Virus record (IMG/VR): IMGVR_UViG_3300021963_000038
Location: 62,001-126,000 of that record
Reading direction: 5' to 3' (one strand)
DNA: 64,000 nt
Source of the DNA: a virus
Part shown: in pieces, positions 23,036 through 54,010 of the stretch
How the letters are laid out: every line of letters starts with the position of its first letter
How positions within the stretch are numbered: the first letter of the stretch is position 1
Position numbers and translations under genes: made by a program
The notes under the pieces: model-generated
What the model was told of the DNA's origin: nothing
What the model saw: only the letters and a program-made list of their open reading frames with translations
Databases searched by the model: none

Positions 23036-23042
23036 ATAAATA
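23036..23042 (+). promoter_or_regulatory. Late-promoter-like ATAAATA
   Basis: ATAAATA lies 25 bases before ATG 23067, with SD AGGAG between. Position and sequence fit a T4-type late promoter for the following presumed late genes. Confidence 0.6.
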
Positions 23043-24138: not shown

Positions 24139-25368
24139 ATGAAATTCAAAGAATTTTTAACGGAAGCAACAGCAACAGGTAAGAACCTACACCTCGAACA
24201 TATTGAGGATGAGATTCTTAATCGTGGTGTGCAAGGTGGTCGTGATGCAATTAATTTCTTACAGTCGTTGAGAGATATGCTTGCTGGTCATGCAAAATCT
24301 AAAGTGAACATTACCACGAAATGGGATGGTGCGCCTGCCGTATTCTGTGGTATTAATCCTGAGAATGGTAAGTTCTTTGTTGGTACTAAAGGCGTCTTTA
24401 ATAAAAATGCCAAGTTAAACTATACCGATGAAGATATTGATAACAATCACCCATCTGAAGGTCTTAATGCGAAATTAAAAGTTGCTTTGCGATACTTGCC
24501 TAAGTTAGGCATCAAAGGTATTCTGCAAGGTGATATGATGTTCTCTAAAGGTGATTTAAAGAAACAAACAATCGATGGTGAAAACTATATTACATTTCAA
24601 CCAAATACAATTGTTTATGCCATACCATCCGATTCTAAACTTGCTGCGTCTATGCAAGCTGCACAAATGGGTATTGTGTTTCATACTTCATACACAGGCA
24701 GAACTATTGAAGATATGAAAGCATCTTTTAATATTGATATCGGTAAATTATCATCAACAAAAGATGTTTGGTTCCGTGATGCATCATTTGTTGATGCTTC
24801 AGGTTCAGCCACATTTACAGAAGATGAAACAAAAGAATTGACAGGCATTTTATCACAAGCAGGTAGAATATTTCAATCGATTTCTTCTCTGACAGTTAAT
24901 CGCATTGCATCTACTGAAACTATCAGAATTCAAATTGCAACATTCAACAACACCAAAGTTCGTGCTGGTGAAAGAATCAAAGATACTCAGAAACATACAA
25001 CAGAATTAATTAAAACGATTGAAGCAAAATTAAATCAACACGTTCTTGATGCCAAGAAAGAAGATACTAGGAAGAAAAGAGTTGCTGAAAAGAATGAAGT
25101 TATGCGATTCTACCGCAGTAATGCATCTGAGTTGCGTAAAGTATTTGACTTTATGAATCTGATTGTTGATGCAAAATTAAAAATCATTCGCAAATTAGAA
25201 ACTATTCGTGATGTTGGTACTTTCATTCGTACTGATGATGGGTTTAGAATTACTGCACCAGAAGGTTTTGTTGCAGTAGATAAATTAAAAGGTAACGCAG
25301 TTAAATTGGTTGATAGGTTAGAATTTGCCCACGCCAACTTTAATGCAGCTAAGAATTGGGACAAATAA
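24139..25368 (+). CDS. DUF6267-like protein with ligase-type KxDG motif and capsid-targeting-like N-terminus
   Basis: A 409-residue protein. The N-terminus MKFKEFLTEA matches the T4 capsid-targeting pattern (MKTYQEFIAEA of internal proteins). TTKWDGAPAVFCG near residue 57 contains KxDG, the nucleotidyl-acceptor motif I of polynucleotide ligases and capping enzymes. FFVGTKGVF and ILQGDMMF follow at plausible distances for motifs Ia and III. The C-terminal third is helical and charged. The reading as a packaged ligase-like enzyme is inference. It shares one base with the next gene. Confidence 0.6.
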   Translation: MKFKEFLTEATATGKNLHLEHIEDEILNRGVQGGRDAINFLQSLRDMLAGHAKSKVNITTKWDGAPAVFCGINPENGKFFVGTKGVFNKNAKLNYTDEDIDNNHPSEGLNAKLKVALRYLPKLGIKGILQGDMMFSKGDLKKQTIDGENYITFQPNTIVYAIPSDSKLAASMQAAQMGIVFHTSYTGRTIEDMKASFNIDIGKLSSTKDVWFRDASFVDASGSATFTEDETKELTGILSQAGRIFQSISSLTVNRIASTETIRIQIATFNNTKVRAGERIKDTQKHTTELIKTIEAKLNQHVLDAKKEDTRKKRVAEKNEVMRFYRSNASELRKVFDFMNLIVDAKLKIIRKLETIRDVGTFIRTDDGFRITAPEGFVAVDKLKGNAVKLVDRLEFAHANFNAAKNWDK

Positions 25369-25837: not shown

Positions 25838-26686
25838 ATGAAAGATTTGATTATAGGTGCTTGCACCAACTATGATTGGGACAAATTAAAGTATTGGGTT
25901 AACTCAATAAACAGAAGTGGTTTTACTGGCGACAAGGTTATGGTTGCCTTTAATATAAGCTTTGAAACTGTTGACAGATTAACTAAAGCTGGTTTCCAAG
26001 TTATTGTTCCTGGTAAATCCGATGAGGTGAACAAACAATTCACCTATCAATCTAACTTACCAATCCATGTGGAACGATTCATCCACATTTACAACTATCT
26101 ACAAACACATGATGAATATCGGTATGTTATCACAACCGATGTGAAAGATGTTATCTTCCAACACAACCCATCTGAAGCATTAGACTTAGAACTAGGTGCA
26201 AGACAACTGTACCTATTTGCTTCCGAAAGTATGTACTACAAAGATGAACCATGGGGCAATCAAAATTTGATTGAAACATTTGGTCCTTTCTTCCACAATA
26301 TTTTCAAAGAGAATGAAATTTATAATGTGGGTGTTCTTGCTGGTCGTGGCCATGCTATTCAAGATTTGGCAGCAATGATTTTTGCCATGTCAGTCAATCG
26401 ACCAATACCAATTGTAGACCAATCAACATTTAACTTTATGATTTCACAAGAACCATATTTGTCAACAGCAAGATATTGTAAATCAGAAGATGGTTGGGCT
26501 TGTCAATTGGGTACAACTGTTGACCCAAGTAAGATAGAACAATTCAGACCTTTCTTATTAGAAGCATCACCAAAAATGATTGCAGGCAATGTTACAACAT
26601 CTAGAGGAAAAGACTTTACAATTGTGCATCAGTATGATAGAATACCAGAATGGCGCAAAATTATCGAGGAAAAATATAATGACTAA
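25838..26686 (+). CDS. GT-A type glycosyltransferase-like protein
   Basis: A 282-residue protein opening the sugar cluster. YVITTDVKDVIFQ near residues 97-109 holds a DxxD-type nucleotide-sugar motif, and YNVGVLAGRGHAIQDLA near 165-181 resembles the acceptor side of GT8/DUF-type transferases. DQSTFNFM and VHQYDR follow. It overlaps the dehydratase gene by eight bases. Donor and acceptor are unknown. Confidence 0.65.
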   Translation: MKDLIIGACTNYDWDKLKYWVNSINRSGFTGDKVMVAFNISFETVDRLTKAGFQVIVPGKSDEVNKQFTYQSNLPIHVERFIHIYNYLQTHDEYRYVITTDVKDVIFQHNPSEALDLELGARQLYLFASESMYYKDEPWGNQNLIETFGPFFHNIFKENEIYNVGVLAGRGHAIQDLAAMIFAMSVNRPIPIVDQSTFNFMISQEPYLSTARYCKSEDGWACQLGTTVDPSKIEQFRPFLLEASPKMIAGNVTTSRGKDFTIVHQYDRIPEWRKIIEEKYND

Positions 26687-27707
26687 ACGAGTATTAATCA
26701 CCGGCGGTGCAGGCTTTATTGCACATCATTTAATTGAAACTATTCTGGACACCACAGATTGGACAATTGTATCACTTGACCGACTAGACTTCTCTGGCAA
26801 TTTAAATCGCCTAGAAGATATTATGAAGAAATATTCACCCGAACAAAAGAAACGGGTTGAGATTGTCTTTCACGATTTGCGAGCAGAAGTTAATCCACAA
26901 ACCGCTGGTTTGATTGGTGATTGCCAACTTGTGTTACACCTTGCAGCTGGTTCTCATGTAGACCGTTCAATTGAATTTCCAATGGAATTTGTGCAAGATA
27001 ATGTTATCGGCACAGTCAACCTTTTACAATTTTCAAGAACACTAAAGAACTTGGAGAGGTTTGTATACTTCTCAACTGATGAAGTATTTGGACCTGCACC
27101 TGAAGGTGTTGACTATAAAGAGAGAGACCGATATAATGCTACGAATCCTTATTCTGCCAGCAAGGCAGCGGGTGAAGAAATGTGTGTTGCCTTTGAGAAC
27201 ACTTACAATATGCCAATTTACATTACACACACAATGAATGTGTTTGGTGAACGTCAGCATCCAGAGAAATTTATTCCTAAAGCCATTCGATATGCTCGTG
27301 ATGGTGAAACACTAACTATTCATTCAGACAGAAGTAAAACTAAAGCCGGTTCTCGGCACTATGTTCATGCAAAAGATGTTGCTGATGGTTTGATGTTTAT
27401 TCTCAATTTACCTGAAGATTATGCCAAAGTTCCTGATTTTGGTGGTGCAAAGATTCCTAAATTTAACATTGTTGGACCTGATGAAGTAGATAATTTAGAG
27501 TTGGCTAAACTTATCGCAGAAGCACAAAACAAAGAACTCAAATATGAAATGGTTGATTTCCATTCATCACGACCTGGCCATGATTTGCGTTATGCATTAT
27601 CTGGTGATTACATGGCAGCTTTAGGATGGAAACCAAAGATTTCTTTGCGTGAACGCATTAGAGATATGGTTATCTGGTCATTAGAAAATGATAAGTGGCT
27701 TAAATGA
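26679..27707 (+). CDS. NDP-sugar 4,6-dehydratase-like extended SDR
   Basis: A 342-residue protein from ATG 26679, with SD GAGGA. The NAD-binding start is VLITGGAGFIAHHLI. STDEVFG near residue 132 and YSASKAAGE near 157 match RmlB-type dehydratases, in which T-D-E and YxxxK carry out oxidation at C4 and loss of C6 hydroxyl. RHYVHAKDVADGL binds the nucleotide-sugar. An epimerase is possible, but TDE favours the dehydratase. It likely makes the 4-keto sugar used by the E1-like enzyme at 32.6 kb. Confidence 0.82.
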   Translation: MTKRVLITGGAGFIAHHLIETILDTTDWTIVSLDRLDFSGNLNRLEDIMKKYSPEQKKRVEIVFHDLRAEVNPQTAGLIGDCQLVLHLAAGSHVDRSIEFPMEFVQDNVIGTVNLLQFSRTLKNLERFVYFSTDEVFGPAPEGVDYKERDRYNATNPYSASKAAGEEMCVAFENTYNMPIYITHTMNVFGERQHPEKFIPKAIRYARDGETLTIHSDRSKTKAGSRHYVHAKDVADGLMFILNLPEDYAKVPDFGGAKIPKFNIVGPDEVDNLELAKLIAEAQNKELKYEMVDFHSSRPGHDLRYALSGDYMAALGWKPKISLRERIRDMVIWSLENDKWLK

Positions 27708-28408
27708 AAATAGCATTATGTCTATCAGGACAACCTCGTAGTGTAAAACAAGGCTATGAGTTTGTTAAACGCAACATACTAGACGGTAACGATGTTACCG
27801 TTTTTTGCCATGTTTGGGAAAATCCAGAGGTCATAGATATTGAACTTTATAAACCTGAAGCGTATATGATGGAGAAATCTTTAACTGATGACTTATCAAA
27901 ATACACAAGATTTCCACCACCACAACCAAATTGGAAAGTAAAAGATCCAGTCCGTTCAACATATAATCAATTGTATGCTATCTTAAAGTGCAACGAATTA
28001 AAACTTGTATATGAAGATGAAAACAGTATGAAGTTTGATTGGGTCATTCGTAGTCGTTTTGATTTTGCAATCAATGCTAAAATTCCATTTGAAGAATTAG
28101 ATAACAGTAAACTTCACATACCTAATTGCCGTATGGTACCAAGTCGTGATTTTGGCAATGACCAATTTGCATTTTCTTCATCTGAAAACATGGACAAATA
28201 TTCTGATACATTTAATCGTATCGATGAATTTTATGATTCAGGCACACAAATGATGTGTGAAGATTTGATGAGTGCAAATTGGAAACAGAAAGGTTTGATT
28301 GGTGAAAATCTTGTTTACTGTGATATCAATCACCCGTTTCCTCCAGGTCCATACAATGGAACTTGGCACAGTTTAATTCGTGAGGACTTTGAACAATGGC
28401 TTCGTTAG
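27704..28408 (+). CDS. Glycosyltransferase-like protein
   Basis: A 234-residue protein starting MKIALCLSGQPRSVKQGYEF. WVIRSRFDFAI near residues 111-121 provides an RxRxD motif typical of this phage/bacterial glycan-cluster family. The DQFAFSS segment is also typical. It overlaps its neighbours by 4 and 13 bases. Assignment to glycan transfer is from motif and context; the exact reaction is unknown. Confidence 0.55.
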   Translation: MKIALCLSGQPRSVKQGYEFVKRNILDGNDVTVFCHVWENPEVIDIELYKPEAYMMEKSLTDDLSKYTRFPPPQPNWKVKDPVRSTYNQLYAILKCNELKLVYEDENSMKFDWVIRSRFDFAINAKIPFEELDNSKLHIPNCRMVPSRDFGNDQFAFSSSENMDKYSDTFNRIDEFYDSGTQMMCEDLMSANWKQKGLIGENLVYCDINHPFPPGPYNGTWHSLIREDFEQWLR

Positions 28409-29121
28409 TAATTTGCATGGCTGGTTTGAATACCAGATTCCATGATGTTGGTTTTGATATACCAAAGTATTTGTTACCATGGAAAAATGAAACAATCATC
28501 CATGAGATTCTCAAACAACTAGGTAAATTTGATGAAATCCTATTGTTAGCTAATAAGCGTGATGTGTATTTCATGCCTAACTTGGTGAAAACTATTGAAC
28601 CACTTGGTCTCACTAAAGATAATATTCATTATATTGGTGACACAAGTGGTCAAGCACATACTGCTTATATTGGTGCCTCACTATTAAAGAACAGAAATAC
28701 CCTTCCCCATCCTTTCTTTGTTCATAATGCCGACACACTATTGATTGGCAGAGATTTCAAAGAAATTGAATCAACAATGTCTGATGGTTATGTTGATGTG
28801 TTTGTTGCCAACAATCCAAAATATTCTTATGTCAGGTCAAAAGATGGTCTTGTGACCGAGATTGTTGAGAAGGCTTTTATTTCTCCATTTGCAAGTTCTG
28901 GTCTTTATGGTTTTAATAATCCCAATCTATATCAAAAAATGTATGAATCTCTATCACAGGGATATATGGGAAAAGAAATGTATATTGCAAATGTGTTAGA
29001 CTATATGATAAAGAATAATATGTCGATTGGTCTAAATGAATTGAATAATGAATATGAAACAATCGTTCTTGGTAGTCCACAAGAATACGGCCTTGAATTG
29101 GCAAGAATGAGTTTAAAATGA
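28396..29121 (+). CDS. Sugar-phosphate nucleotidyltransferase
   Basis: A 241-residue protein. The N-terminus ICMAGLNTRFHDVGFDIPKYLLP is a variant of the GxGTRxxPxTxxxPKxLxP nucleotide-binding signature of RmlA/GalU-type enzymes. FFVHNADTLL near residue 110 is the metal-binding D. It should activate a sugar- or cyclitol-1-phosphate with an NTP for the cluster. Which NTP cannot be read from sequence. Confidence 0.78.
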   Translation: MASLVICMAGLNTRFHDVGFDIPKYLLPWKNETIIHEILKQLGKFDEILLLANKRDVYFMPNLVKTIEPLGLTKDNIHYIGDTSGQAHTAYIGASLLKNRNTLPHPFFVHNADTLLIGRDFKEIESTMSDGYVDVFVANNPKYSYVRSKDGLVTEIVEKAFISPFASSGLYGFNNPNLYQKMYESLSQGYMGKEMYIANVLDYMIKNNMSIGLNELNNEYETIVLGSPQEYGLELARMSLK

Positions 29122-30086
29122 AAATAAAAGACTTGAAAGGTGGTTCTTTAAGTACCACAGAGTTACACGAAATTGATGGTGTTCATTATGTCAAAAAGAA
29201 AATCAATCTTGTCAAAGAAAGAGAATATGGATTTGTTCGTTGGTATTCTCAATTAAAGAAGATACAAAGATACTCTGTTGATTTTCCAAGTTTGTTTCCA
29301 AAAATTATTGATGTTTCATATGAAACAGACTATGCAGTTATGACTTTACAACACATGGAAGGTTTTAGAGATATCAAAACTATTCTATCCGAAGATAAAT
29401 TAACTGAGCAACAGATTATAAAAATAGTAGATGCTATTTGGAAATCATTTGCTTTACTACATTCTAAAACTTATCCACCAGTTATTGGTGCGCCTAAGTT
29501 ATATTATAAAGAAGAAGTGAGGCAGAAACTAAATGATGCTTTGATAAATGATGAATTTCTACAATTTTTCGGTCATGCTACAGGTGGCGTATTTGAATAC
29601 AATGGTGAAATGACTCATGGTATATTTTCTTATCTTTATGAATTAGAAAATATATTCTTTGATTTGAAACTTTCTTCTGAAGAAAACATACATGGTAATC
29701 CAACATTGGAAAATATGTTGTATTCATTTGAGGAAGATAGAGTTGTTTTTATTGACCTCTATGAAGAAAGTATGATGGACACAAAGTTTCTAGATTATGC
29801 ACAGGTGTTACAGTGTTCACGCAGTCATTATGGTTATATAAATGACCGTGATGTTGTTGTTATGGGTTCAAGTGTATCTCATAATTTAGAAATACCAAAA
29901 AACTTTGAGAAATTCAATTTCTATTTTGAATTGAAGATTCCAAACAATTGGATTAAGTTGGTAAATATATTAGAAGCCACACAATTCATTCGTATGTTGC
30001 CATTCAAATGTCGTGCTGGTGAGATTAAAAAGGCAAAGTTCTTCTATGTTCATGCCTGTAACTTATTAGGTAAGGTTTTAAATTAA
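29118..30086 (+). CDS. APH-like small-molecule kinase
   Basis: A 322-residue protein with the aminoglycoside-phosphotransferase fold pattern: VHYVKKKINL (Lys), then VMTLQHMEGFRD hinge, HGNPTLENMLY (catalytic loop, HGxxxxxN, with Asn-Pro in place of the usual Asp) and VVFIDLYEE (metal-binding ID). The catalytic loop lacks the standard D of HGD, so activity needs testing. It likely phosphorylates a sugar or cyclitol for the adjacent nucleotidyltransferase. Confidence 0.68.
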   Translation: MKIKDLKGGSLSTTELHEIDGVHYVKKKINLVKEREYGFVRWYSQLKKIQRYSVDFPSLFPKIIDVSYETDYAVMTLQHMEGFRDIKTILSEDKLTEQQIIKIVDAIWKSFALLHSKTYPPVIGAPKLYYKEEVRQKLNDALINDEFLQFFGHATGGVFEYNGEMTHGIFSYLYELENIFFDLKLSSEENIHGNPTLENMLYSFEEDRVVFIDLYEESMMDTKFLDYAQVLQCSRSHYGYINDRDVVVMGSSVSHNLEIPKNFEKFNFYFELKIPNNWIKLVNILEATQFIRMLPFKCRAGEIKKAKFFYVHACNLLGKVLN

Positions 30087-31219
30087 TGGAAAATGTATTA
30101 GTTAATTTTGACAATTTCAAAAGAACTTGGTCTGTTAAGGCAGAGTTACCTGTTTCTTTTACTGTCAAATATTCAAGTGATATTTTCAATTCATCTAACT
30201 TGGATTTGTTGTCATATAATGATTCTTATCGTAGGTTGGTTGTTATCGATAAAACAGTTTATGAAATTTACAAAGATGATTTGCATAGTTTTTTTGATAA
30301 ACATAAAGTTGAGTTGAAATTATTTGTAATTGATGCAACAGAAGAAAACAAGGATTGGAAACATACAGATGAAGTTTTAAGATTCTTTGAAGATGTTGGT
30401 GTTCTTCGTAGAGAACCAATCATTGCTATTGGTGGTGGAGTTTTACTAGACCTTGTTGGTTTCTGTTGCAGTATCTATCGCCGTGGTATTCCTTACATTA
30501 AGATACCAACAACATTATTGGCAATCGTAGATGCTTCAGTTGGTGTTAAAGTTGCCGCAAATCATTTTGATAGGCGTAATCGTATTGGTGCATACTATCC
30601 ACCAATCGCAACCTTTCTCGACAAGAAGTTTATCAAGACACAAAACGAAAGAGATATCGTTAATGGTATTGCTGAGATATTCAAACTTGCTGTTATCAAG
30701 AGTGAAGAATTGTTTGTCTTACTTGAAGAAAACTATGAACAATTAATTAATGAGAAGTTTCAATTTGGTGCGGTACCTGTTCGTGTAATCAACCTTGCAA
30801 TCACAGGTATGATTGATGAATTGGCACCAAATCTATGGGAAAAGAAATTAGACCGATGTGTTGACTTTGGTCATTCATTTGGTCCTTTGATAGAGATGAA
30901 TAACTTACCAAACCTATATCACGGTGAGGCTGTTGTGTTAGATTGTTTGTTCAGTTCTTGTATTGCAGAAGTTCGTGGGTATATCACAAGAGAACAGTTA
31001 TCGAGAATCTTTATTTGTGCTAAAAAATTAAAACTACCAACATGGCACCAAGATTTTTCTAAGGTTCGTTTACTTGAGTCTGCCTTAGAAGATACAAAGA
31101 AACACAGAAATGGTAATCAATATCTTCCTGTGCCAATTGGTATTGGACAATATACAATGTTGAATAATGTTACTGTCGATGAATTGAGAGTGGCAGCTGA
31201 TTTATTTGAGGAAATATGA
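30086..31219 (+). CDS. Sugar phosphate cyclase (2-epi-5-epi-valiolone synthase-like)
   Basis: A 377-residue member of the 3-dehydroquinate synthase superfamily. AIGGGVLLDLVGFCCSIYRR (NAD site), IPTTLLAIVDASVGVKVAAN, RNRIGAYYPP, CVDFGHSFGPLIEM and YHGEAVVLD give the zinc and phosphate ligands. The forms YRRGIPY, NRIGAYYPP and DFGHSFGP are closer to EEVS-type cyclases of C7-cyclitol pathways than to AroB, where NMIGAFYQP and LGHTFGHAIE are usual. EEVS converts sedoheptulose 7-phosphate to valiolone. This is inference from motifs; AroB-like activity is not excluded. Confidence 0.75.
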   Translation: MENVLVNFDNFKRTWSVKAELPVSFTVKYSSDIFNSSNLDLLSYNDSYRRLVVIDKTVYEIYKDDLHSFFDKHKVELKLFVIDATEENKDWKHTDEVLRFFEDVGVLRREPIIAIGGGVLLDLVGFCCSIYRRGIPYIKIPTTLLAIVDASVGVKVAANHFDRRNRIGAYYPPIATFLDKKFIKTQNERDIVNGIAEIFKLAVIKSEELFVLLEENYEQLINEKFQFGAVPVRVINLAITGMIDELAPNLWEKKLDRCVDFGHSFGPLIEMNNLPNLYHGEAVVLDCLFSSCIAEVRGYITREQLSRIFICAKKLKLPTWHQDFSKVRLLESALEDTKKHRNGNQYLPVPIGIGQYTMLNNVTVDELRVAADLFEEI

Positions 31220-31893
31220 AAACAATTTTAATTACTGGCACAACAAGTGGTCTTGGTGCTACGATTGCTCACCACTATCTCGAACAAGGTTGGAATGTAA
31301 TTGGTTTAGCTCGTAGTGATTCTATATTTTCATATTCTAACTATAAACATTATAAGACAGACATTAGTAAAATCTATACAAGTTTAAGTGATACCTTTGA
31401 CCAAATCGGAGATACTAAGATTGATATCTTGGTTAACAATGCCGCTATTTTTAAAATGAAATCTTTTTCAGAAACAAGAATTGATGATATGTGCGATATG
31501 ATTGATATCAATCTTAAAGGTCCAATGTATGTAACTAAGTTTGCATTAAAAAATATGGAAAAAGGCAGTCGTATATTTTTCATCAATTCAGTTGCTGGTT
31601 TAGAACAATTAGAAAACCAATCTGTATATTGTGCCACAAAACATGGTCTTACAGGATTTGCAGGAGTTCTTGGTAAAGAATTGCAATCAAAAGGAATCAA
31701 AGTTACCAGCATACATCCAGGTGGTATTGATACACCACTATGGAACAAAGATGTACCTTACCCATGTGGTGATGTAAGTAAGGCAATCTCACCAATAGAG
31801 GTTGTAAAATTAATTGATTTCGTGTATAATAGTAAATTCAATATTGATTATAAAACAATTAAAATGTTCCCTGATACAGAATGGCATCAATGA
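31216..31893 (+). CDS. Short-chain dehydrogenase/reductase
   Basis: A 225-residue classical SDR: ILITGTTSGLGATIAHHY (TGxxxGxG), ILVNNAAIF (NNAA), INSVAGL with catalytic Ser, and YCATKHGLTGF (YxxxK). HPGGIDTPLW closes the fold. It probably oxidises or reduces the cyclase or sugar product. It starts in an ATGA overlap with the cyclase stop. Confidence 0.88.
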   Translation: MKTILITGTTSGLGATIAHHYLEQGWNVIGLARSDSIFSYSNYKHYKTDISKIYTSLSDTFDQIGDTKIDILVNNAAIFKMKSFSETRIDDMCDMIDINLKGPMYVTKFALKNMEKGSRIFFINSVAGLEQLENQSVYCATKHGLTGFAGVLGKELQSKGIKVTSIHPGGIDTPLWNKDVPYPCGDVSKAISPIEVVKLIDFVYNSKFNIDYKTIKMFPDTEWHQ

Positions 31894-32612
31894 GTATTAT
31901 ACCTGACAACCACCTTTTCATAGTTACTTCTGCCCTTAATACGGGCATTGGTGTTATTGATTTTGAAACTCGTGTCAATCAAACACTTGAAACCTTGAAA
32001 GTTCTCCGTGAAAGAGTGCCTCAAGCAATTATTACTTTGACTGATGCATCATCAAGACCAGTAGATAAATCTATCATGGATGAAATGTCGAAGTACAGTA
32101 ACATAAATTTAATATTTCATAATGATAGTGACCTGTGTACACTTGCAAATGCTGGATTAAAATCACAAGCAGAAATTATACTGTTACATAAAACATTATC
32201 AATGTTCAAAATGAATGCTGATTTGTTAAAAGTCATGTCAAGTGTAAAGAGAGTTTACAAATTATCAGGTAGAACTAATTTGATTGATGGTTTTGACATT
32301 GAAAGATATAATGATAAAAACTTGTATGGTAAATATGTTTTTAAGAAACGTATGCCATCATGGATGCCTATCGATAAACAAGTTGGCACGGGTGCAGACC
32401 ACTTATTGATTACAAGAATGTATTCTATCTGTATTTCTTTATTAGATAACTACTACAATACATTACCTTTGATTTATCAATCTGTGAATGAAAACAATAT
32501 TGATACGGAACATGGACATTACAAGCACATAGATAAACAATACTTGGTTGAATTTGATAATTTGTATTGCCAAGGAACTATGGCATCAACAGGACTTACG
32601 GAAACATATTGA
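31881..32612 (+). CDS. Unknown protein of the sugar cluster
   Basis: A 243-residue protein. ATG 31890 overlaps the SDR stop and may be the true start. The pattern FIVTSALNTGIG at the start and VKRVYKLSGRTNL near residue 125 resembles glycan-cluster proteins of unknown fold, with LLITRMYSI and HGHYKHID later. A transferase is likely from context, not proven. Confidence 0.55.
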   Translation: MASMSIIPDNHLFIVTSALNTGIGVIDFETRVNQTLETLKVLRERVPQAIITLTDASSRPVDKSIMDEMSKYSNINLIFHNDSDLCTLANAGLKSQAEIILLHKTLSMFKMNADLLKVMSSVKRVYKLSGRTNLIDGFDIERYNDKNLYGKYVFKKRMPSWMPIDKQVGTGADHLLITRMYSICISLLDNYYNTLPLIYQSVNENNIDTEHGHYKHIDKQYLVEFDNLYCQGTMASTGLTETY

Positions 32613-33895
32613 TGATTGATGATAAACTAATTGAAGAACTTGCTCGTCAAGCAAAACCAAAATATCAACAAGACTACACTAACTTTAATCCAGAAAAAGA
32701 TTATGTGATGTATTCTGGTCAGTTGTGGGACCATGACGAGTTTGCAGCTGGTCTTAAATCTTTTCTAACAGGTAAATGGTTGCCTGCTGGTGAAAGAGTT
32801 GAACAATTTCAAATGAAGTTTTCAAAGAAATATAATGTGAAGGCTTCGCACATGGTAAACTCTGGTTCATCAGCCAATTTGGTTATGATGGCCGCAGTTA
32901 AGAATCATCTACAATGGCAAGATGGTGATGAAGTTATCGTTTCACCTGTAGGATTCCCAACTACAATCGCACCATTGATGCAGAACAACCTCAAACCAGT
33001 ATTCATTGATATTGAGTTTGATACATTAAACTTTGATGTGAATCTAATCGAAGAAAAGATTACACCAAAAACAAAAGCAATCATTGTTTCTCCTGTGTTG
33101 GCAAACCCACCAGATATGGATGCGATTGTTGATATCTGCAAGAAACATAATCTTGTGTTGATTGGTGACAATTGTGATTCACTAGGCACCAAATGGGATG
33201 GTAAATTAATTACCGATTTATATTACTGTTGGTCAACATCATTCTATCCCGCACACCATATGTCAACAGGTGAAGGTGGCATGATTTCATCCAACGACAT
33301 TAAACTGATTGATGTTGCTAGGTCTATATCATGGTGGGGTCGTGATTGTTATTGTGTCGGTTCAAACAATATGTTACCATGTGGTACTTGTGGCAATCGA
33401 TTCGATAAATGGTTACCTGGTTATGATGGCATCATCGACCACAAATACATCTTTGCATATGCAGGTTATAATTTGAAACCACTTGATATGCAAGGTGCTA
33501 TTGGTATTGCACAACTAGGAAAAGTTGATTACATAGACCAGAAAAGAAAAGAACACAAAGAACGATTATCTAAACTGCTGACTAAGTATTTGAATGTTCG
33601 TATTGCAGATAAGTTAGAGAAGTCAGACCCATCATGGTTTGGTGTTCCAATTATTTGTGAATCACAAGAAGTGAAAGAAAAGTTAGTTGCCTTCTTTGAA
33701 GCAAATCGTATTCAAACAAGAAACTATTTTGCTGGTAATATATTGTTACATCCAGGTTTTAAACATCTAGATGATGCAAGTAAATATCCATTGGCAAACA
33801 AAGCACTATCTCATGTATTTTTGTTAGGTTGTCCTCCTTTTTGGAACGATGCAGTATTTGATTACATTGAAAAGGTATTAAAATCATGTCAGTAA
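32612..33895 (+). CDS. E1-like NDP-4-keto-6-deoxyhexose 3-dehydrase (RfbH/DdhC-like)
   Basis: A 427-residue DegT-fold protein; ATG 32612 overlaps the preceding TGA. STSFYPAHHMSTGEGG has His where aminotransferases have the PLP lysine, as in E1 dehydrase. DCYCVGSNNMLPCGTCGNRF supplies clustered cysteines like those holding the [2Fe-2S] centre of E1, and the following GYDGIIDHKYIFAYAGYNLK also matches RfbH. E1 removes the C3 hydroxyl of CDP-4-keto-6-deoxyglucose, needing a reductase (E3); none is encoded nearby, so a host reductase or ferredoxin may serve. Confidence 0.85.
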   Translation: MIDDKLIEELARQAKPKYQQDYTNFNPEKDYVMYSGQLWDHDEFAAGLKSFLTGKWLPAGERVEQFQMKFSKKYNVKASHMVNSGSSANLVMMAAVKNHLQWQDGDEVIVSPVGFPTTIAPLMQNNLKPVFIDIEFDTLNFDVNLIEEKITPKTKAIIVSPVLANPPDMDAIVDICKKHNLVLIGDNCDSLGTKWDGKLITDLYYCWSTSFYPAHHMSTGEGGMISSNDIKLIDVARSISWWGRDCYCVGSNNMLPCGTCGNRFDKWLPGYDGIIDHKYIFAYAGYNLKPLDMQGAIGIAQLGKVDYIDQKRKEHKERLSKLLTKYLNVRIADKLEKSDPSWFGVPIICESQEVKEKLVAFFEANRIQTRNYFAGNILLHPGFKHLDDASKYPLANKALSHVFLLGCPPFWNDAVFDYIEKVLKSCQ

Positions 33896-34077
33896 TTATT
33901 GATAAACCACACTACAAATTAACCGTAGATAAAAATCCAGTTTTTAACCCACCAGAGTTGAAAGAATTAGTTTTTAAAAAAACTTCATACAATGAAGATG
34001 GTTCTATTCTTACTTACAGTAAATTTGAATTGTATCTCACTGAAGATGAAATTAAAATGATTAAAGCTGCACTATGA
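33886..34077 (+). CDS. Small hypothetical protein of the sugar cluster
   Basis: A 63-residue protein overlapping the 3-dehydrase by ten bases and the next gene by four. It begins MSVIIDKPHYKLTVDKNPVF and ends YLTEDEIKMIKAAL. A beta-hairpin plus helix is likely. No family is recognised. Confidence 0.55.
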   Translation: MSVIIDKPHYKLTVDKNPVFNPPELKELVFKKTSYNEDGSILTYSKFELYLTEDEIKMIKAAL

Positions 34078-34889
34078 AAGTACAAGTATTTGGTGGTAAT
34101 GGATTTGTTGGTTCTGCTTATGTGAAAAGAAATCCAGATTGTATTGTTAAATCAAGAAATGACTACACCGTAGGTGCAGAAGATGTTCTTTATATGATTT
34201 CGACAGTTACAAATTACCATGTCAAAACAGACCCATACATTGATATCAAAACTAATTTGATGACGTTGATGATGGTGTTGAGTCAATGTAAAGATATGAA
34301 TTTGACATTTAACTTTGTCAGTTCATGGTTTGTTTATGGTGAAACAGAAATGCCTGCAACTGAAGAATCAAATTGTTACCCAAATGGTTTCTATTCGATT
34401 ACAAAAAGATGTGCAGAACAATTATTGATTTCTTATTGTGAAACTTTTGGTATCAAGTATCGTATTCTCAGATTGGCCAATGTAGCGGGTCATGGTGATA
34501 AGAAAGCCTCACCACAAAAGAACGCACTTCAACATATGATTAATGAATTGAAGTTAGGTCGTGATGTAAATGTGTATGATGGTGGTAATTTGTATCGTGA
34601 TTATATTCATGTCAATGATGTTGCCCGAGCAATCGAATTGATATTGGAAAAAGGTGAAGTAAACACAATCTATAATGTGGGCAATGGTATGCCTCTTTTG
34701 TTTAAAGATATGATTGAGTATGCCAAAGAATTAGTCGGTGGGCAAGGCAAATTAAATCCAATCGAAATTCCACAGTTCCACAAGACAGTTCAAGTCCGTA
34801 GTATGTGGATGAAGAACGACAAATTGGCAGCGCTTGGATACACTCTAATGTACGATATGAAGGCTATCATTCAAGACATGGTGAAATGA
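34074..34889 (+). CDS. NAD-dependent sugar epimerase/reductase-like extended SDR
   Basis: A 271-residue protein: VQVFGGNGFVGSAYV (GxxGxxG), NFVSSWFVYGE, YSITKRCAEQL (YxxxK), and LYRDYIHVNDVARAI. These are extended-SDR landmarks shared by epimerases, 4-ketoreductases and dehydratases. With the 3-dehydrase upstream, a final C4 or C5 reduction/epimerisation is the most economical guess. Confidence 0.8.
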   Translation: MKVQVFGGNGFVGSAYVKRNPDCIVKSRNDYTVGAEDVLYMISTVTNYHVKTDPYIDIKTNLMTLMMVLSQCKDMNLTFNFVSSWFVYGETEMPATEESNCYPNGFYSITKRCAEQLLISYCETFGIKYRILRLANVAGHGDKKASPQKNALQHMINELKLGRDVNVYDGGNLYRDYIHVNDVARAIELILEKGEVNTIYNVGNGMPLLFKDMIEYAKELVGGQGKLNPIEIPQFHKTVQVRSMWMKNDKLAALGYTLMYDMKAIIQDMVK

Positions 34890-35536
34890 ATTTAATTCTA
34901 TATCAGGCATATTACCAGCAAGAACAACTTGTTCACCTAGATTCGACTTTTACTCCTTACGACAATACGGCAAACGATGCACCACATTTGCGTGAGTTGC
35001 CGATGTGGAGAAAGTTATTAGAACAACACAAAGACTCCGATTTACATTGGGGTCTTTTGTCATGGAGATGGTTACAAAAAACTGGTGTACCACCAATAAA
35101 ATTCAAAGAATGGATTCTCGCAAATGAAGGTTACGATGTTTATCATCTAGACCCTTTTGCATATCTTGCCAATGATTTTCCAAATTTATGGGTGCAAGGT
35201 GATATGTGGCATCCAGGTATGCTAGAGTTTGCAAGAATATTATTTCCAAAAATTGGCATCAATACACCAGTTGAACAGTTTAAATATCTACCTGAAGATT
35301 TTGGAACTTGCAATTATTTTGTAGGCAACTCTAAATTTTGGACAAATTACCTTGGTTTTATTGACCTATGTCTAAAACTATGTGATGAAGATGAACGGTT
35401 GAGCAACTACATATACAAAGATGGTCGAGAATATAATGGACATTTTATTCCATACTTTTCATTTGTTATTGAAAGGTTGTTCTCTATTCACAATATTTTG
35501 AATCGACAAATAACTGTTAAAAAATACCATGATTAA
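34886..35536 (+). CDS. Unknown protein of the sugar cluster
   Basis: A 216-residue protein from ATG 34886 (ATGA overlap); the longer frame from 34805 lies inside the SDR gene. It is rich in aromatic residues (LHWGLLSWRW, LWVQGDMWHPG, NYFVGNSKFWTNY). This looks like a glycan-cluster transferase of unassigned family. Assignment is by context only. Confidence 0.55.
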   Translation: MNLILYQAYYQQEQLVHLDSTFTPYDNTANDAPHLRELPMWRKLLEQHKDSDLHWGLLSWRWLQKTGVPPIKFKEWILANEGYDVYHLDPFAYLANDFPNLWVQGDMWHPGMLEFARILFPKIGINTPVEQFKYLPEDFGTCNYFVGNSKFWTNYLGFIDLCLKLCDEDERLSNYIYKDGREYNGHFIPYFSFVIERLFSIHNILNRQITVKKYHD

Positions 35537-36311
35537 TCAATTTGACTATGAAAAGTTAATTAAACAATATCAAGAAGGCAAACCATTTCGCCATGTGGTG
35601 ATTGACAACTTCTTTGATGCTGAAACTGCATTGAAACTATCTGCTGAATTTCCAGACTTCAATGACCCTAAAATTTGGTCTGTATATAAGAACCCTATTG
35701 AGAATAAGAAACTGACTCCTAATTGGGACTTGTTTCCTAAAAATACATACCGAGCATTTACTTTGATGAATACTCCAGAGTTTGTTGATAAGATTCGCAT
35801 AATTACAGGTATCAATAATCTAGAAGCCGATTATGGTTTACATGGTGGTGGTTGGCACATGACTGCTCGAGGTGGTAAATTGAATATGCACAAAGATTAT
35901 TCAATTCATCCTAAACTAGGCAAAGAAAGACGCATCAACATTATCATCTACATGACACCTGCATGGGAAGAAGAATGGGGTGGTGGTTTAGAATTCTGGT
36001 CACATGATGCAGAGAAGAATCTACCAAAAGAATGTGTGACCAAATTGTATAATAAATTTAATCGTGCGGTTCTATTTGACACCGCAGATAACTCATGGCA
36101 TGGACTACCAACAGAGCTCCAATGTCCAGAAGGTGTATATCGTAAGTCATTGAATATTTACTATGTTTCTGAAGCCAGACCGGAATCAGAAAAACACGAT
36201 AAAGCTTTGTTTGCACCATATGGTGACCAAGTAAATGACCCTCAGATACTTGAATTGATTAAAAAACGGTCTAGTTCCAAGACATCCGGTGAAGTTTACA
36301 GAACACCGTAA
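35529..36311 (+). CDS. Prolyl-4-hydroxylase-like 2OG-Fe(II) oxygenase
   Basis: A 260-residue dioxygenase. LNMHKDYSIHP near residues 117-127 has the HxD iron ligands, NSWHGLP near 194-200 the distal His, and RKSLNIYYVS the 2OG-binding Arg. The INIIIYMTPAWEEEWGGGLEFW segment is typical of phage and bacterial homologues in glycan clusters. It may hydroxylate a sugar or peptide. It ends the sugar cluster. Confidence 0.85.
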   Translation: MINQFDYEKLIKQYQEGKPFRHVVIDNFFDAETALKLSAEFPDFNDPKIWSVYKNPIENKKLTPNWDLFPKNTYRAFTLMNTPEFVDKIRIITGINNLEADYGLHGGGWHMTARGGKLNMHKDYSIHPKLGKERRINIIIYMTPAWEEEWGGGLEFWSHDAEKNLPKECVTKLYNKFNRAVLFDTADNSWHGLPTELQCPEGVYRKSLNIYYVSEARPESEKHDKALFAPYGDQVNDPQILELIKKRSSSKTSGEVYRTP

Positions 36312-36315
36312 ATAC

Positions 36316-36322
36316 ATAAATA
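36316..36322 (+). promoter_or_regulatory. Late-promoter-like ATAAATA
   Basis: ATAAATA sits 39 bases before the ATG at 36361 in a 49-base gap. It fits a T4-type late promoter for the following presumed head genes. The SD is AGAGGCGG. Confidence 0.6.
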
Positions 36323-36360: not shown

Positions 36361-38508
36361 ATGAAATTTAGAGAATTTTTAGAAGAACAAAAAGAAAACC
36401 ATGCCGTTATGGCTTTTGGAAGGATGAACCCTCCAACAACAGGTCATGGTAAACTTGTAGACAAAGTTAAAGAGGTCGCCAAAAAAGTAGGCGGTTCTCA
36501 TCATGTCATATTATCACATTCGCAAGACAAGGAAAAGAATCCTCTGTCTGCCGAAGATAAGATAAAACACGCAAAACGATTCTTTCCAGATACTAATCTT
36601 TCAGTATCGAACAAAGAACATCCAACATTCCTACAACACGCAGCAAAACTTCACAAACAAGGTGTAACTCATTTACACATGGTTGCTGGTTCTGACCGTG
36701 TTCCTGAATACAAAAAGAAACTCGCACAATATAATGGCACACACGAAGGTGCATTATATAATTTTAAAAAGATTACGGTTCATAGTGCAGGCGAACGGGA
36801 TCCTGATGCTGAAGGCACAACTGGTATGTCAGCCTCTAAAATGAGAGGCCATGCTGCAAAAGGTAATTTTAAAGAATTTAAAAAAGGCATTCCCTCTCAC
36901 GTTGAACCACATCATGCAAAAGAATTGTACCATGATGTTCGTAAACATATGGGTATTAAAGAAGAAACAGAACTTGATATTCTGTTTGAAGAAATTTTAG
37001 AAGAAGGTGTCCACGATAAAGCCATTTTCAAAGCAGTATTTTTAGCAGGTGGTCCAGGTTCTGGTAAAGACTATGTTCTTGATAACACACTTGCAGGTCA
37101 TGGCCTAACTGAAATCAATTCAGATAAGGCACTTGAGTTTCTCATGGACAAAGAGAACCTCGACAAGAAAATGCCTGATAACGAAGAAGCACAAAGAGAT
37201 GCTGTTCGTTCAAGAGCTAAAAGTATGACTGAATTGCGCCAACGATTGGCACTACAAGGTCGCAACGGCCTTATCATCAATGGTACTGGTGATGACTATG
37301 AAAAAATCAAACGCATCAAAGAAAAATTAGAAGCCATTGGTTATGAAACTTCTATGATTACAGTTAATACTCGTGATGAAGTTTCTCAACAAAGAAATGT
37401 TGAGCGTGGCCAACGTGGTGGTCGTACCGTGCCGGAAAACATCCGTAAAGAAAAATGGGACTCAGTTCAGAAATCAAGACCACAACTTGCAGAGTTATTT
37501 AAAGATAACTATGTTGAATTTGATAATTCTGAAGATTTGCGTTCTGCACATCCAGATGTAGTTAAAACCAAAAAAGATGAATTGTTATCTTTGTATAAAA
37601 ACTTTCAAAAGTTTGTTTCTAAACCACCTAAGAATGATAAAGCAAAAGAATGGGTTGGTGGGCAATTAGGCAAGAAAGATACTTTACCGGTTCCTAAAAA
37701 AGGACAAGAAGCTGTACATCACCCAGCAGATAGAGATTCTAAAGCTACTCTACAAGCAAGACAATTAGGTTTAACCTATTTTGGTTTTGGTCGTTGGGGT
37801 AAAGGTGGTGTTGTTTCACATCATGTTGTGCATGGTCAATTAGTTGCCAACGAAACAGAAAAAAGAGGACAACAAACCGTGCAAGTACCACAAACAAAAA
37901 CTATTGAGAAGATTAAAAAAGTTAACGAAGAATTCGAAAACTTTTTAAATGAATCGGTTACAGTATCGGTAATAGAAGAATCTAACAAAGTTGATTTACA
38001 CCATAGTAAATTAATGAAAGATGGTAAAGGTAAAGTTAGAACTTTTATGATACGCAGAAATGCAGCCAAAGAGGCTCATACACACAATGGTGTCGTACAT
38101 AAAATCGATAAGGGATATGTTGTTAAAATAAAGGAGAATGAAGATGTTAAAAGCATTAGTCAATTATTTAAAGTTGAAACCGAAGGTAGAAGAATCACCG
38201 AAAGTGGAAGTACAACCAGTTCCAGAACCAGAGGTGAAGAAACCGGCAGTAAAAAAATCACCCTCGAAGAAATCCGTGCCCGCCAAAAAGAAAAAATAAA
38301 TGAAATTGATGGTGGTACAGAACCAGGTATGGCATTGAATGGTTACGCAAAAGAAACTATCAGCAGAAAACGTAAAGATGGTAAAGTAACTGTTACAGAA
38401 TTAACTGGTGATGAAACTACTATGAGTATTGGTGATAAAAAAGAAGATGACCTTAAAAAAGTAGGCATCAATCTTTCATCATTTAAAGCAAAGAAATTTG
38501 TAGGGTAA
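36361..38508 (+). CDS. Nucleotidyltransferase-kinase fusion with capsid-targeting-like N-terminus
   Basis: A 715-residue protein. MKFREFLEEQ resembles the T4 capsid-targeting sequence. Residues about 14-160 form an HxGH-family nucleotidyltransferase (FGRMNPPTTGHGKL; MSASKMRG as ISSTxxR motif), like NMN adenylyltransferases. Residues about 222-400 form a zeta-toxin-like P-loop kinase (LAGGPGSGKDYVLDNTL). The region 465-500 carries ATLQARQLGLTYFGFGRWG, seen in many T4-like proteins. The C-terminus is low-complexity and overlaps a second gene at 38144. Two enzyme domains in a likely packaged protein suggest NAD or nucleotide modification on infection; this is inference. Confidence 0.75.
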   Translation: MKFREFLEEQKENHAVMAFGRMNPPTTGHGKLVDKVKEVAKKVGGSHHVILSHSQDKEKNPLSAEDKIKHAKRFFPDTNLSVSNKEHPTFLQHAAKLHKQGVTHLHMVAGSDRVPEYKKKLAQYNGTHEGALYNFKKITVHSAGERDPDAEGTTGMSASKMRGHAAKGNFKEFKKGIPSHVEPHHAKELYHDVRKHMGIKEETELDILFEEILEEGVHDKAIFKAVFLAGGPGSGKDYVLDNTLAGHGLTEINSDKALEFLMDKENLDKKMPDNEEAQRDAVRSRAKSMTELRQRLALQGRNGLIINGTGDDYEKIKRIKEKLEAIGYETSMITVNTRDEVSQQRNVERGQRGGRTVPENIRKEKWDSVQKSRPQLAELFKDNYVEFDNSEDLRSAHPDVVKTKKDELLSLYKNFQKFVSKPPKNDKAKEWVGGQLGKKDTLPVPKKGQEAVHHPADRDSKATLQARQLGLTYFGFGRWGKGGVVSHHVVHGQLVANETEKRGQQTVQVPQTKTIEKIKKVNEEFENFLNESVTVSVIEESNKVDLHHSKLMKDGKGKVRTFMIRRNAAKEAHTHNGVVHKIDKGYVVKIKENEDVKSISQLFKVETEGRRITESGSTTSSRTRGEETGSKKITLEEIRARQKEKINEIDGGTEPGMALNGYAKETISRKRKDGKVTVTELTGDETTMSIGDKKEDDLKKVGINLSSFKAKKFVG
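38144..38299 (+). CDS. Overprinted small Lys/Pro-rich protein inside the fusion gene
   Basis: A 51-residue frame (+1 relative to the host gene) from ATG 38144 to TAA 38299, preceded by the strong SD AAGGAG at 38130-38135. It begins MLKALVNYLKLKPKVEES and ends in a lysine/alanine/proline-rich tail (KKSPSKKSVPAKKKK), like small DNA-binding proteins. The host frame here is low-complexity, so both may be real. A sequencing frameshift is an alternative explanation. Confidence 0.45.
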   Translation: MLKALVNYLKLKPKVEESPKVEVQPVPEPEVKKPAVKKSPSKKSVPAKKKK

Positions 38509-52675: not shown

Positions 52676-53313
52676 TGGCACACATTGTTGCTAATCTTCC
52701 AGCAGTAAAATGTTTTGTTCGTAAAGAGTTTCTCTATGACTTTGAGAAAGGTCATGGAGAACTTGAGCCTTGTTGGTGGGTGAGTATTAAATCACTAAGA
52801 GGCCAAGCATTTCGTATTGAATCATACCTAAACAACTATGGTGCATTGTATGACAAACTACCACTTCATGCATATTGTTGGAAACCTATTGAAGGTGAAC
52901 CTCTACCTTTAGATTATTTGCAGTTGTGGGACTGTTTATCATATGATATTGCTGTGATAAAGAAAGCACAGCTGCAATCGATGAGGTGTAAGTTTAAGTT
53001 AAAGAATGGAGATTGGCAATATGGTGTTTATATGTTTACAGTTGATTCTGCTCATCCTGATTTTAACGTACTTGATACAGGGTTTAGCGAAGATATCGAG
53101 GACCACAAGTCTTATAATTTCGTCATGTGTGATAATGGTCAGTTTGCTGCTCAGCCAAATAATCGTTTAATCATACTAGAACCAAGTAGTAATCCAAAAG
53201 AACTGAAGATGCCAGATTTTAAGGTTGCAACAAAAAAATGGTCGGTTGAAACCGATCCTAAGTGGGCATTAGGTGACACAAACACAATAATGTACGAAAG
53301 AGAAAATGATTGA
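52675..53313 (+). CDS. Conserved hypothetical protein after nrdB
   Basis: A 212-residue protein from ATG 52675 (overlapping the nrdB TAA). The start MAHIVANLPAVKCFVRKEFL and CWWVSIKSLRGQAFRIESYL, and PLDYLQLWDCLSYD, look like a conserved phage protein that I recall near nrdB in aquatic T4-like phages. Beta-rich pattern (QYGVYMFTVDSAH). Function unknown. Confidence 0.7.
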   Translation: MAHIVANLPAVKCFVRKEFLYDFEKGHGELEPCWWVSIKSLRGQAFRIESYLNNYGALYDKLPLHAYCWKPIEGEPLPLDYLQLWDCLSYDIAVIKKAQLQSMRCKFKLKNGDWQYGVYMFTVDSAHPDFNVLDTGFSEDIEDHKSYNFVMCDNGQFAAQPNNRLIILEPSSNPKELKMPDFKVATKKWSVETDPKWALGDTNTIMYEREND

Positions 53314-54010
53314 ACTAATTTACCTTTTGGTGATGACCCATATCACCATCATATCAGTTACATTGTATCTGCACAGGGGTCAAGCACACAGAGGTATTGA
53401 GTTTCATCCAATACTAGGTCATTTCATGCGTTTCTGGTTGTGGTTAACAACAGGTATGATAACTAAACAATGGGTTGCCATACACCGAAAACACCATCAA
53501 AAGAGTGATATTGAAGGTGACCCGCATAGTCCTCATGTATTTGGTATTTGGACAGTCTTAACTAAAGGAGCATTGTTATACAATGATGCATCAAAAGATA
53601 AAGATATGGTTGATACATATGGTGCTGGCACTCCTGATGATTGGGTGGAAAGAAGTATATACAGTAAACATAGTCGTTTAGGAATTACTTTGTTATTGGT
53701 CATAAATTTACTTTGTTTTTCATGGGTAGGTTTATTAATATGGGCAATTCAAATGATATGGATTCCATTTTGGGCTGCAGGTGTTATTAATGGCATAGGA
53801 CACTTTTGGGGTTACAGAAATGGTGAAACTAAAGATTATAGTCGCAATATTAGTCCTTGGGGTATTGTTATTGGTGGTGAAGAATTGCACAACAACCACC
53901 ATCTCTCACCAGCGAGTGCCAAGTTATCTCAAAAATGGTGGGAATTTGATATAGGTTGGATGTGGTTAACAATATTCAGATTCTTTAAGTTGGCAAAATT
54001 AACAAGATAA
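53306..54010 (+). CDS. Fatty acid desaturase
   Basis: A 234-residue integral membrane di-iron enzyme. The three His clusters are LYLHRGQAHRG (HRxxAH), IHRKHHQKSD (HRxHH) and EELHNNHHLSP (HxxHH). Spans lie near residues 2-20, 38-50 and 128-165. It puts double bonds into acyl chains, probably to alter host membrane fluidity. It is followed by an LpxH-like gene. Confidence 0.9.
   Translation: MIELIYLLVMTHITIISVTLYLHRGQAHRGIEFHPILGHFMRFWLWLTTGMITKQWVAIHRKHHQKSDIEGDPHSPHVFGIWTVLTKGALLYNDASKDKDMVDTYGAGTPDDWVERSIYSKHSRLGITLLLVINLLCFSWVGLLIWAIQMIWIPFWAAGVINGIGHFWGYRNGETKDYSRNISPWGIVIGGEELHNNHHLSPASAKLSQKWWEFDIGWMWLTIFRFFKLAKLTR

What the first reader, a model, noticed from the sequence alone, without database searches (positions are those of the whole stretch)
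25838..36311. Phage-borne cyclitol/deoxysugar gene cluster
Thirteen overlapping genes encode GT-A transferases, an RmlB-like 4,6-dehydratase, a sugar nucleotidyltransferase, an APH-like kinase, an EEVS-like sugar phosphate cyclase, two SDRs, an E1-like 3-dehydrase, a 2OG-Fe(II) oxygenase and unknown proteins. Seen: the motifs and tight overlaps. Known: EEVS starts C7-cyclitol pathways, and E1 makes 3-deoxysugars. Inferred: the phage makes an activated cyclitol- or 3-deoxy-sugar for glycosylating its virion, DNA or the host surface. I know of no described phage pathway with this combination.
Basis: partly seen in the sequence, partly recalled or inferred. Interest (0 to 1): 0.85.

Follow-up and report, generated by a model that had tools for sequence, protein, structure and literature searches.

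The report
Phage pathway for an activated cyclitol
A group of uncultured T4-like water phages carries a compact, strongly conserved set of enzymes that should turn a common sugar phosphate of the host into a ring-shaped pseudo-sugar (a C7-cyclitol) attached to a nucleotide, with sugar-attaching enzymes next to it; such pseudo-sugars are best known from bacterial drugs such as acarbose, and I found no report of a virus making one.

Summary
Thirteen co-directional, mostly overlapping genes (25838-36311) lie in a 135.9-kb T4-like viral contig. [quoted passage not shown] About 90 IMG/VR relatives show two modules were lumped together. One is a near-invariant core: nucleotidyltransferase, APH-fold kinase, EEVS, SDR. 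The other (4,6-dehydratase, E1 3-dehydrase, epimerase, oxygenase) is optional: E1 is in 9 of 49 complete clusters, and a methyltransferase-like gene replaces it in most others. A soil-bacterial MAG carries the same kinase-EEVS pair in a surface-polysaccharide-type locus, with a non-homologous reductase in the SDR's place. Best reading: sedoheptulose-7-P is cyclised, reduced, 1-phosphorylated and nucleotidylated, and the NDP-cyclitol is used by GT-A transferases. Late-promoter-like sites bracket the cluster; the acceptor is unknown. Open problems: the kinase has Asn instead of the catalytic Asp, E1's reductase partner was not found, no chemistry is shown. New variant of known kinds; no published phage EEVS pathway was found in the literature searchable here.

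The parts
23036..23042 (+). T4-type late-promoter core ATAAATA upstream of the gene at 23067, heading the unit that precedes the cluster
   Evidence: 4 sites in the window against 26 expected, all + strand and intergenic; a site 2.3-4.3 kb upstream of the first GT in most of the loci printed; NATAAATA is the cyanophage late promoter (PMC2984593)
25838..26686 (+). P0001, putative GT-A glycosyltransferase, present in all 49 complete clusters
   Evidence: PHROG 1579 glycosyltransferase 9.1e-7; conserved TTDVKDVIF
26679..27707 (+). P0002, RmlB-like NDP-sugar 4,6-dehydratase (optional module)
   Evidence: TIGR01181 1.6e-70, below equivalog cut-off; STDEVFG and YxxxK
27704..28408 (+). P0003, conserved protein of PHROG 13607; possibly a glycosyltransferase (inference from the VIRSRFDF motif only)
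   Evidence: PHROG 13607 8.9e-27; in 49/49 complete clusters
28396..29121 (+). P0004, sugar/cyclitol-1-phosphate nucleotidyltransferase (core)
   Evidence: profile match to 4evw 3.4e-29 and RmlA-type enzymes; invariant G-x-N-T-R and P-K motifs
29118..30086 (+). P0005, APH-fold small-molecule kinase (core); ATP-site residues kept, catalytic Asp replaced by Asn (HGNPTLEN)
   Evidence: AlphaFold2 pLDDT 93.4; Foldseek best APH(2'')-Ia 1.8e-6; motif counts
30086..31219 (+). P0006, EEVS-type sedoheptulose 7-phosphate cyclase (core)
   Evidence: ValA 5.5e-84; 13/13 active-site columns as ValA; tree
31216..31893 (+). P0007, classical SDR ketoreductase (core)
   Evidence: adh_short 2.6e-39; TGxxxGxG and S-x12-Y-x3-K in 68 of 69 relatives
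31881..32612 (+). P0008, GT-A fold glycosyltransferase
   Evidence: AlphaFold2 pLDDT 92.8; Foldseek Ktr4p/Kre2p mannosyltransferases and glycogenin, about 1e-6
32612..33895 (+). P0009, E1/RfbH-like 4-keto-6-deoxyhexose 3-dehydrase (optional module)
   Evidence: 3bcx 5e-69; RfbH 1.3e-108, below cut-off; His in place of Lys and four Cys in all phage copies aligned
33886..34077 (+). 63-codon ORF, function unknown
   Evidence: sequence read directly; overlaps both neighbours
34074..34889 (+). P0010, NDP-sugar epimerase/reductase, extended SDR (optional module)
   Evidence: Epimerase 2.2e-32
34886..35536 (+). P0011, unknown protein of the optional module (start placed at 34886 from homologue lengths)
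   Evidence: no PHROG, NCBIfam or Pfam hit; in 8/49 complete clusters
35529..36311 (+). P0012, 2OG-Fe(II) oxygenase (mostly with the optional module)
   Evidence: 2OG-FeII_Oxy_3 4.6e-15; in 10/49 complete clusters
36316..36322 (+). late-promoter core immediately after the cluster, upstream of the next gene (36361)
   Evidence: same place 39-47 bases before the right flanking gene in most loci printed

Best explanation
The cluster is a phage-encoded pathway for a nucleotide-activated C7-cyclitol and the enzymes that transfer it. P0006 cyclises host sedoheptulose 7-phosphate to 2-epi-5-epi-valiolone (activity inferred from family, active site and tree). P0007 reduces the ring ketone, P0005 phosphorylates the resulting hydroxyl (C1), and P0004 couples it to an NTP to give an NDP-cyclitol (order inferred by analogy with AcbN/AcbU/AcbR of acarbose biosynthesis). 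GT-A enzymes, P0008 by fold and P0001 by weak family match, transfer it to a phage- or host-made glycan. The glycan is then varied by exchangeable modules: a 6-deoxy/3-deoxysugar branch (P0002, P0009, P0010, with P0011 and P0012) in this phage, a methyltransferase-like gene in most relatives. The genes are most likely expressed late, as part of a unit starting at the promoter-like site at 23036. The acceptor is probably a virion protein or a host surface polysaccharide (about equal odds); phage DNA is less likely.
For: Cyclase: ValA best by far; 13/13 active-site columns as ValA, unlike AroB (Asn and His at two diagnostic columns) and unlike DDGS (Ala, Thr); on the EEVS side of the tree, split from AroB 100/96. 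Coupling: kinase and cyclase adjacent in every locus long enough to show it; kinase without cyclase only on one contig ending inside the kinase; core junctions overlap. The core occurs in phage contigs with quite different flanking genes (L030, L040, L027, L018, L134, L150, L084). Independent pairing: bacterial locus L057 has kinase - EEVS - aldo/keto reductase - NTase-like next to a GT2 and a 4,6-dehydratase, so a different reductase fills the SDR's place. Reductase, 1-kinase and NTase steps are described for acarbose (PMC9200736). Kinase and GT folds. Late unit.
Against: No enzyme activity, metabolite or transcript is shown. The kinase's catalytic-base Asp is Asn in every intact phage copy and in the bacterial one, so it may not be an ordinary kinase. 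No gene for C2 epimerisation or dehydration, as in acarbose and validamycin, so the exact cyclitol is unknown. NTase relatives also accompany a RuBisCO-like protein in other phages, so the NTase family is not unique to cyclitol loci. L134 and L135 lack a recognised NTase next to the core. No isolate carries the core; all phage copies come from metagenomic contigs.
Confidence: 0.62

Rival explanations
1. The cyclase feeds a free small molecule (a pseudosugar inhibitor or UV-protective compound), not a glycan; the glycosyltransferases are an unrelated neighbouring cluster.
For: Known EEVS and DDGS pathways end in small molecules: acarbose, validamycin, gadusol, mycosporines (PMC9200736, PMC4426668). 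In several phage contigs the core stands without the GT1 and P0008 families (L027, L030, L040, L018).
Against: An NTase lies directly upstream in nearly all loci; GT families flank the core in all or nearly all 49 complete clusters; the bacterial copy sits in a surface-polysaccharide-type locus; no methyltransferase-oxidoreductase (gadusol) or ATP-grasp (mycosporine) gene was recognised in the window cluster.
Confidence: 0.13
2. The cyclase is a divergent 3-dehydroquinate synthase boosting aromatic synthesis.
For: Pfam and NCBIfam name it AroB-like (TIGR01357 209 bits).
Against: The score is below the AroB equivalog cut-off of 305; two active-site columns typical of AroB carry ValA residues in all 25 phage copies examined; the tree excludes it from AroB; the neighbours are glycan genes, not shikimate genes.
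Confidence: 0.04
3. The kinase-like protein is a pseudokinase; the NTase, if it acts on the cyclitol, uses phosphate placed by a host kinase, and P0005 serves as a scaffold or cyclase partner.
For: HGNPTLEN with Asn at the catalytic base in every intact phage copy; strict adjacency of kinase and cyclase could mean a complex.
Against: The ATP-site Lys (K27), Glu (E36), Asn199 and metal Asp213 are all invariant, which argues for retained nucleotide binding; a 1-kinase is needed to make the NTase substrate.
Confidence: 0.2
4. The glycan is attached to phage DNA as a defence against restriction, as in T4.
For: T4-like phages glucosylate hydroxymethylcytosine (established knowledge); replication genes lie nearby.
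Against: No thymidylate-synthase/hydroxymethylase-family gene in G000, G497, G498 or G499, although two other phages with the core (G500, G501) have a family member; the cluster is bracketed by late-promoter-like sites.
Confidence: 0.08

Closest known systems
C7-cyclitol pathways of acarbose and validamycin (AcbC/ValA, AcbN, AcbU, AcbR/ValB)
   Same: EEVS entry enzyme; a reductase, a kinase and a nucleotidyltransferase for making an NDP-cyclitol; glycosyltransferases (PMC9200736).
   Different: No recognised epimerase, dehydratase, 7-kinase or phosphatase for the cyclitol; the kinase is APH-fold with Asn at the catalytic site, while AcbM/ValC are ROK-like and AcbK adenosine-kinase-like; encoded by a virus next to GT-A enzymes.
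Holophagaceae MAG CTSoil_006 surface-polysaccharide-type locus (L057)
   Same: Adjacent homologous kinase (also HGNxTLEN) and EEVS (48% identity), then a reductase and an NTase-like gene.
   Different: Aldo/keto reductase instead of SDR; GT2 transferase and other sugar genes around it; bacterial contig.
Phage LPS/glycan clusters: cyanophage P-SSM2 (24 LPS genes) and the pelagimyophage host-recognition cluster
   Same: T4-like aquatic phages with glycosyltransferases and deoxysugar genes, proposed to alter the host surface against co-infection (PMC2984593; PMC7029224).
   Different: No cyclitol pathway mentioned in the passages read; those clusters are described as variable, whereas here a fixed four-gene core persists.
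E1/RfbH (3,6-dideoxyhexose pathways) and cyanophage homologues (S-B05, S-B43, S-H68; 52.7%)
   Same: Catalytic His, Fe-S cysteines, phage occurrence.
   Different: No reductase partner (E3) or CDP-glucose NTase found; the P0002 partner is closer to dTDP- than to CDP-glucose dehydratases.

Membership tests
[quoted passage not shown]
   EEVS/DDGS-side group separated from AroB 100/96; phage rows within the ValA-side group with bacterial EEVS-like proteins, inner support moderate
[quoted passage not shown]
   13/13 columns in 25/25 phage copies. The published 14-site list (Kean 2014) could not be read; columns were chosen from knowledge of DHQS and ValA
[quoted passage not shown]
   needs an enzyme assay
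3-dehydroquinate synthase (AroB) | Passes the AroB equivalog model and has the AroB active-site Asn/His | tested here: not met
   209 bits against a cut-off of 305; Asp and Pro at those columns
desmethyl-4-deoxygadusol synthase (DDGS) | Ala and Thr at the two columns where ValA has Asp and His | tested here: not met
   phage copies have Asp and His; one DDGS structure served as reference
APH/choline-kinase-type small-molecule kinases | Kinase fold | tested here: met
   (best match APH(2'')-Ia; TM about 0.5, distant)
APH/choline-kinase-type small-molecule kinases | Catalytic Asp in HxDxxxxN | tested here: not met
   Asn in every intact copy
E1 (PMP/[2Fe-2S] 4-keto-6-deoxyhexose 3-dehydrase) | His instead of the PLP Lys, and four Cys for the cluster | tested here: met
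   spacing of the third Cys differs from 3bcx
E1 (PMP/[2Fe-2S] 4-keto-6-deoxyhexose 3-dehydrase) | E3 reductase partner encoded by the same genome | tested here: not met
   no Fer2 domain in six phage records; a host enzyme or a fragmentary record remains possible
Acarbose-type NDP-cyclitol pathway | EEVS with reductase, 1-kinase and cyclitol-1-phosphate NTase | tested here: inconclusive
   all gene types present and linked; homology of kinase and NTase to AcbU and AcbR was not tested; activities untested

The most novel reading that the evidence does not exclude
A minimal four-enzyme NDP-C7-cyclitol pathway, built around a new kinase family that works without the canonical catalytic Asp, is a widespread phage trait used to build carbocyclic glycans on virions or host surfaces, so that viruses use pseudo-sugars as structural glycan units.
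Probability: 0.4. Interest if true: 0.85.

Novelty: new variant of a known kind. Interest (0 to 1): 0.7.

Why it matters
C7-cyclitol chemistry is known mainly from actinobacterial drugs and from sunscreens. A fixed viral four-gene core, with a bacterial counterpart in a polysaccharide-type locus, would mean that carba-sugars are also activated as glycan building blocks in nature, would give an unusually short route to an NDP-cyclitol, and would offer a single-operon test of how phages change virion or host surfaces. The kinase, with Asn where related enzymes need Asp, is a clean mechanistic question.

Tried and rejected
AroB misannotation: rejected by tree and active site. Horizontal acquisition judged from GC: no contrast, the cluster is 32-37% GC like the rest. 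Cyanophage identity: the DNA polymerase is only 51% identical to cyanophage enzymes and no psbA or transaldolase was found; host left open. INPHARED relatives of the core: none for the kinase, only AroB-type hits under 32% for the cyclase. Sequence-profile search of the kinase and of P0008 against the PDB found nothing; folds solved it. Bacterial kinase homologues: only L057's genome among 297 of its phylum, none in 199 genomes of the Streptomyces group; the bacterial sample is narrow. Sigma-70-like promoter scan: chance level (56 found, 62 expected). Rfam: nothing. Literature for phage or virus plus EEVS, valiolone or dehydroquinate synthase as an auxiliary gene: no paper in the hit lists was evidently about such a pathway. 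The 2014 ValA structure paper is not held.
Full report
Setting. The window is part of a 135.9-kb uncultured virus record. It encodes T4-type DNA polymerase, replicative helicase, primase, ribonucleotide reductase and a CobS-like protein; the DNA polymerase is about 51% identical to cyanomyovirus enzymes. No tRNAs and no psbA or transaldolase were found, so the phage is T4-like but its host is unknown.

Observation. Twelve recognisable CDS and one 63-codon ORF run from 25838 to 36311 on one strand, nearly all overlapping. Two proteins without Pfam or NCBIfam families were modelled with high confidence: P0005 is kinase-fold with aminoglycoside phosphotransferase APH(2'')-Ia as best match, and P0008 is a GT-A glycosyltransferase. 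P0003 and P0011 remain unassigned.

The cyclase. ValA (4p53) is the best solved relative by a wide margin (285 bits; DDGS 217; best AroB 132). At 13 active-site columns all 25 phage copies examined equal ValA; AroB rows differ at the Asn and His columns, and DDGS at two columns. The maximum-likelihood tree puts the phage sequences on the EEVS side of a 100/96 split from AroB, in a group with the Holophagaceae protein L057; some inner nodes are weak and one long Streptomyces-group row falls among the phages. Activity is inferred.

Two modules. Scans of IMG/VR found 55 and then 90 loci encoding cyclase relatives, and 103 for the kinase. The gene order NTase-kinase-cyclase-SDR is nearly invariant; a kinase without a cyclase was seen once, on a contig that ends inside the kinase. 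In 49 loci spanning both flanks, P0001, P0003, NTase, kinase and cyclase are in 49, SDR in 47 and P0008 in 46, but E1 in only 9 and the oxygenase in 10. A methyltransferase-like family (weak Pfam support) is present in 36, and E1 and it exclude each other in all but one. The E1 set is thus a separate decoration module. The core also occurs among quite different flanking genes, and core genes overlap by 1, 4 or 8 bases as a rule.

Bacterial counterpart. A Holophagaceae MAG carries kinase, EEVS (48% identity), aldo/keto reductase and an NTase-like gene in a row, beside a GT2 and a GDP-mannose-dehydratase-type enzyme. Replacement of the SDR by an unrelated reductase supports a ketone-reduction step after cyclisation. 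This is one MAG; its binning was not tested.

Mechanism. In acarbose synthesis a reductase (AcbN), a 1-kinase (AcbU) and an NTase (AcbR) lead to GDP-valienol (PMC9200736). The phage core has one candidate for each step and nothing recognised for epimerisation or dehydration, so I infer the short route sedoheptulose 7-phosphate, 2-epi-5-epi-valiolone, reduced cyclitol, cyclitol 1-phosphate, NDP-cyclitol. Shown here: families, folds, residues, linkage. Inferred: every reaction, their order, the product and the acceptor.

The kinase anomaly. Across 72 distinct kinase sequences the motif is HGN[P/L/I]TLEN, one truncated copy aside and once with Leu for His, where APH-type enzymes have HxDxxxxN (established knowledge). 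The other nucleotide- and metal-site residues are invariant in the 19 aligned. Either the family uses a different base or it is a pseudokinase.

Expression and acceptor. The T4-type late core ATAAATA occurs 4 times in the window against 26 expected, always on the + strand between genes. It lies upstream of the unit before the cluster and 39-47 bases before the gene after it in most relatives printed, and only 5 sites fall inside 296 kb of cluster sequence. Cyanophages use NATAAATA late (PMC2984593). This suggests that the cluster belongs to a late unit, which fits virion glycosylation or late host-surface change. The absence of a thymidylate-synthase-family gene in the window's record argues against T4-type DNA glucosylation. 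Host-surface change against co-infection has been proposed for LPS genes of related phages.

Novelty. Phage glycan clusters, phage E1 homologues and EEVS pathways are each known. Their combination in a fixed phage core was not found in the papers searchable here or in isolate genomes. I rate it a new variant of a known kind. Limits: metagenomic data only, narrow bacterial sampling, no biochemistry.

Noticed in passing
L154:760-2365 and L208-L286: A RuBisCO-like protein (PF00016; metal-site K-x-D-E kept, loop-6 Lys apparently absent) sits behind an NTase, with a small gene of no known family between them in the loci inspected; an NTase hit accompanies it in about 76 of 79 phage loci examined, and 8 also have kinase-EEVS-SDR. 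It looks like a second phage nucleotide-sugar cassette, perhaps more unusual than this one.
   Followed up: partly
window 9294, 23036, 36316, 42152: The late-promoter core ATAAATA is about six-fold depleted in the window and remains only at intergenic + strand positions.
   Followed up: partly
window 24139-25368 and 36361-38508: The proteins on either side of the cluster begin MKFKEFLTEA and MKFREFLEEQ, resembling the capsid-targeting start of T4 internal proteins (from memory), so they may be injected virion proteins.
   Followed up: no
window 36361-38508: A 715-aa protein joins a cytidylyltransferase-like (NMNAT-type) domain to a Zeta-toxin/P-loop kinase-like domain.
   Followed up: no
window 53306-54010: A fatty-acid desaturase-like gene stands near the ribonucleotide reductase genes.
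   Followed up: no
phage record LR756502.1, 445129-446382: The closest relative of the E1-like protein in the phage collection (60%) is in a 642-kb uncultured phage genome.
   Followed up: no
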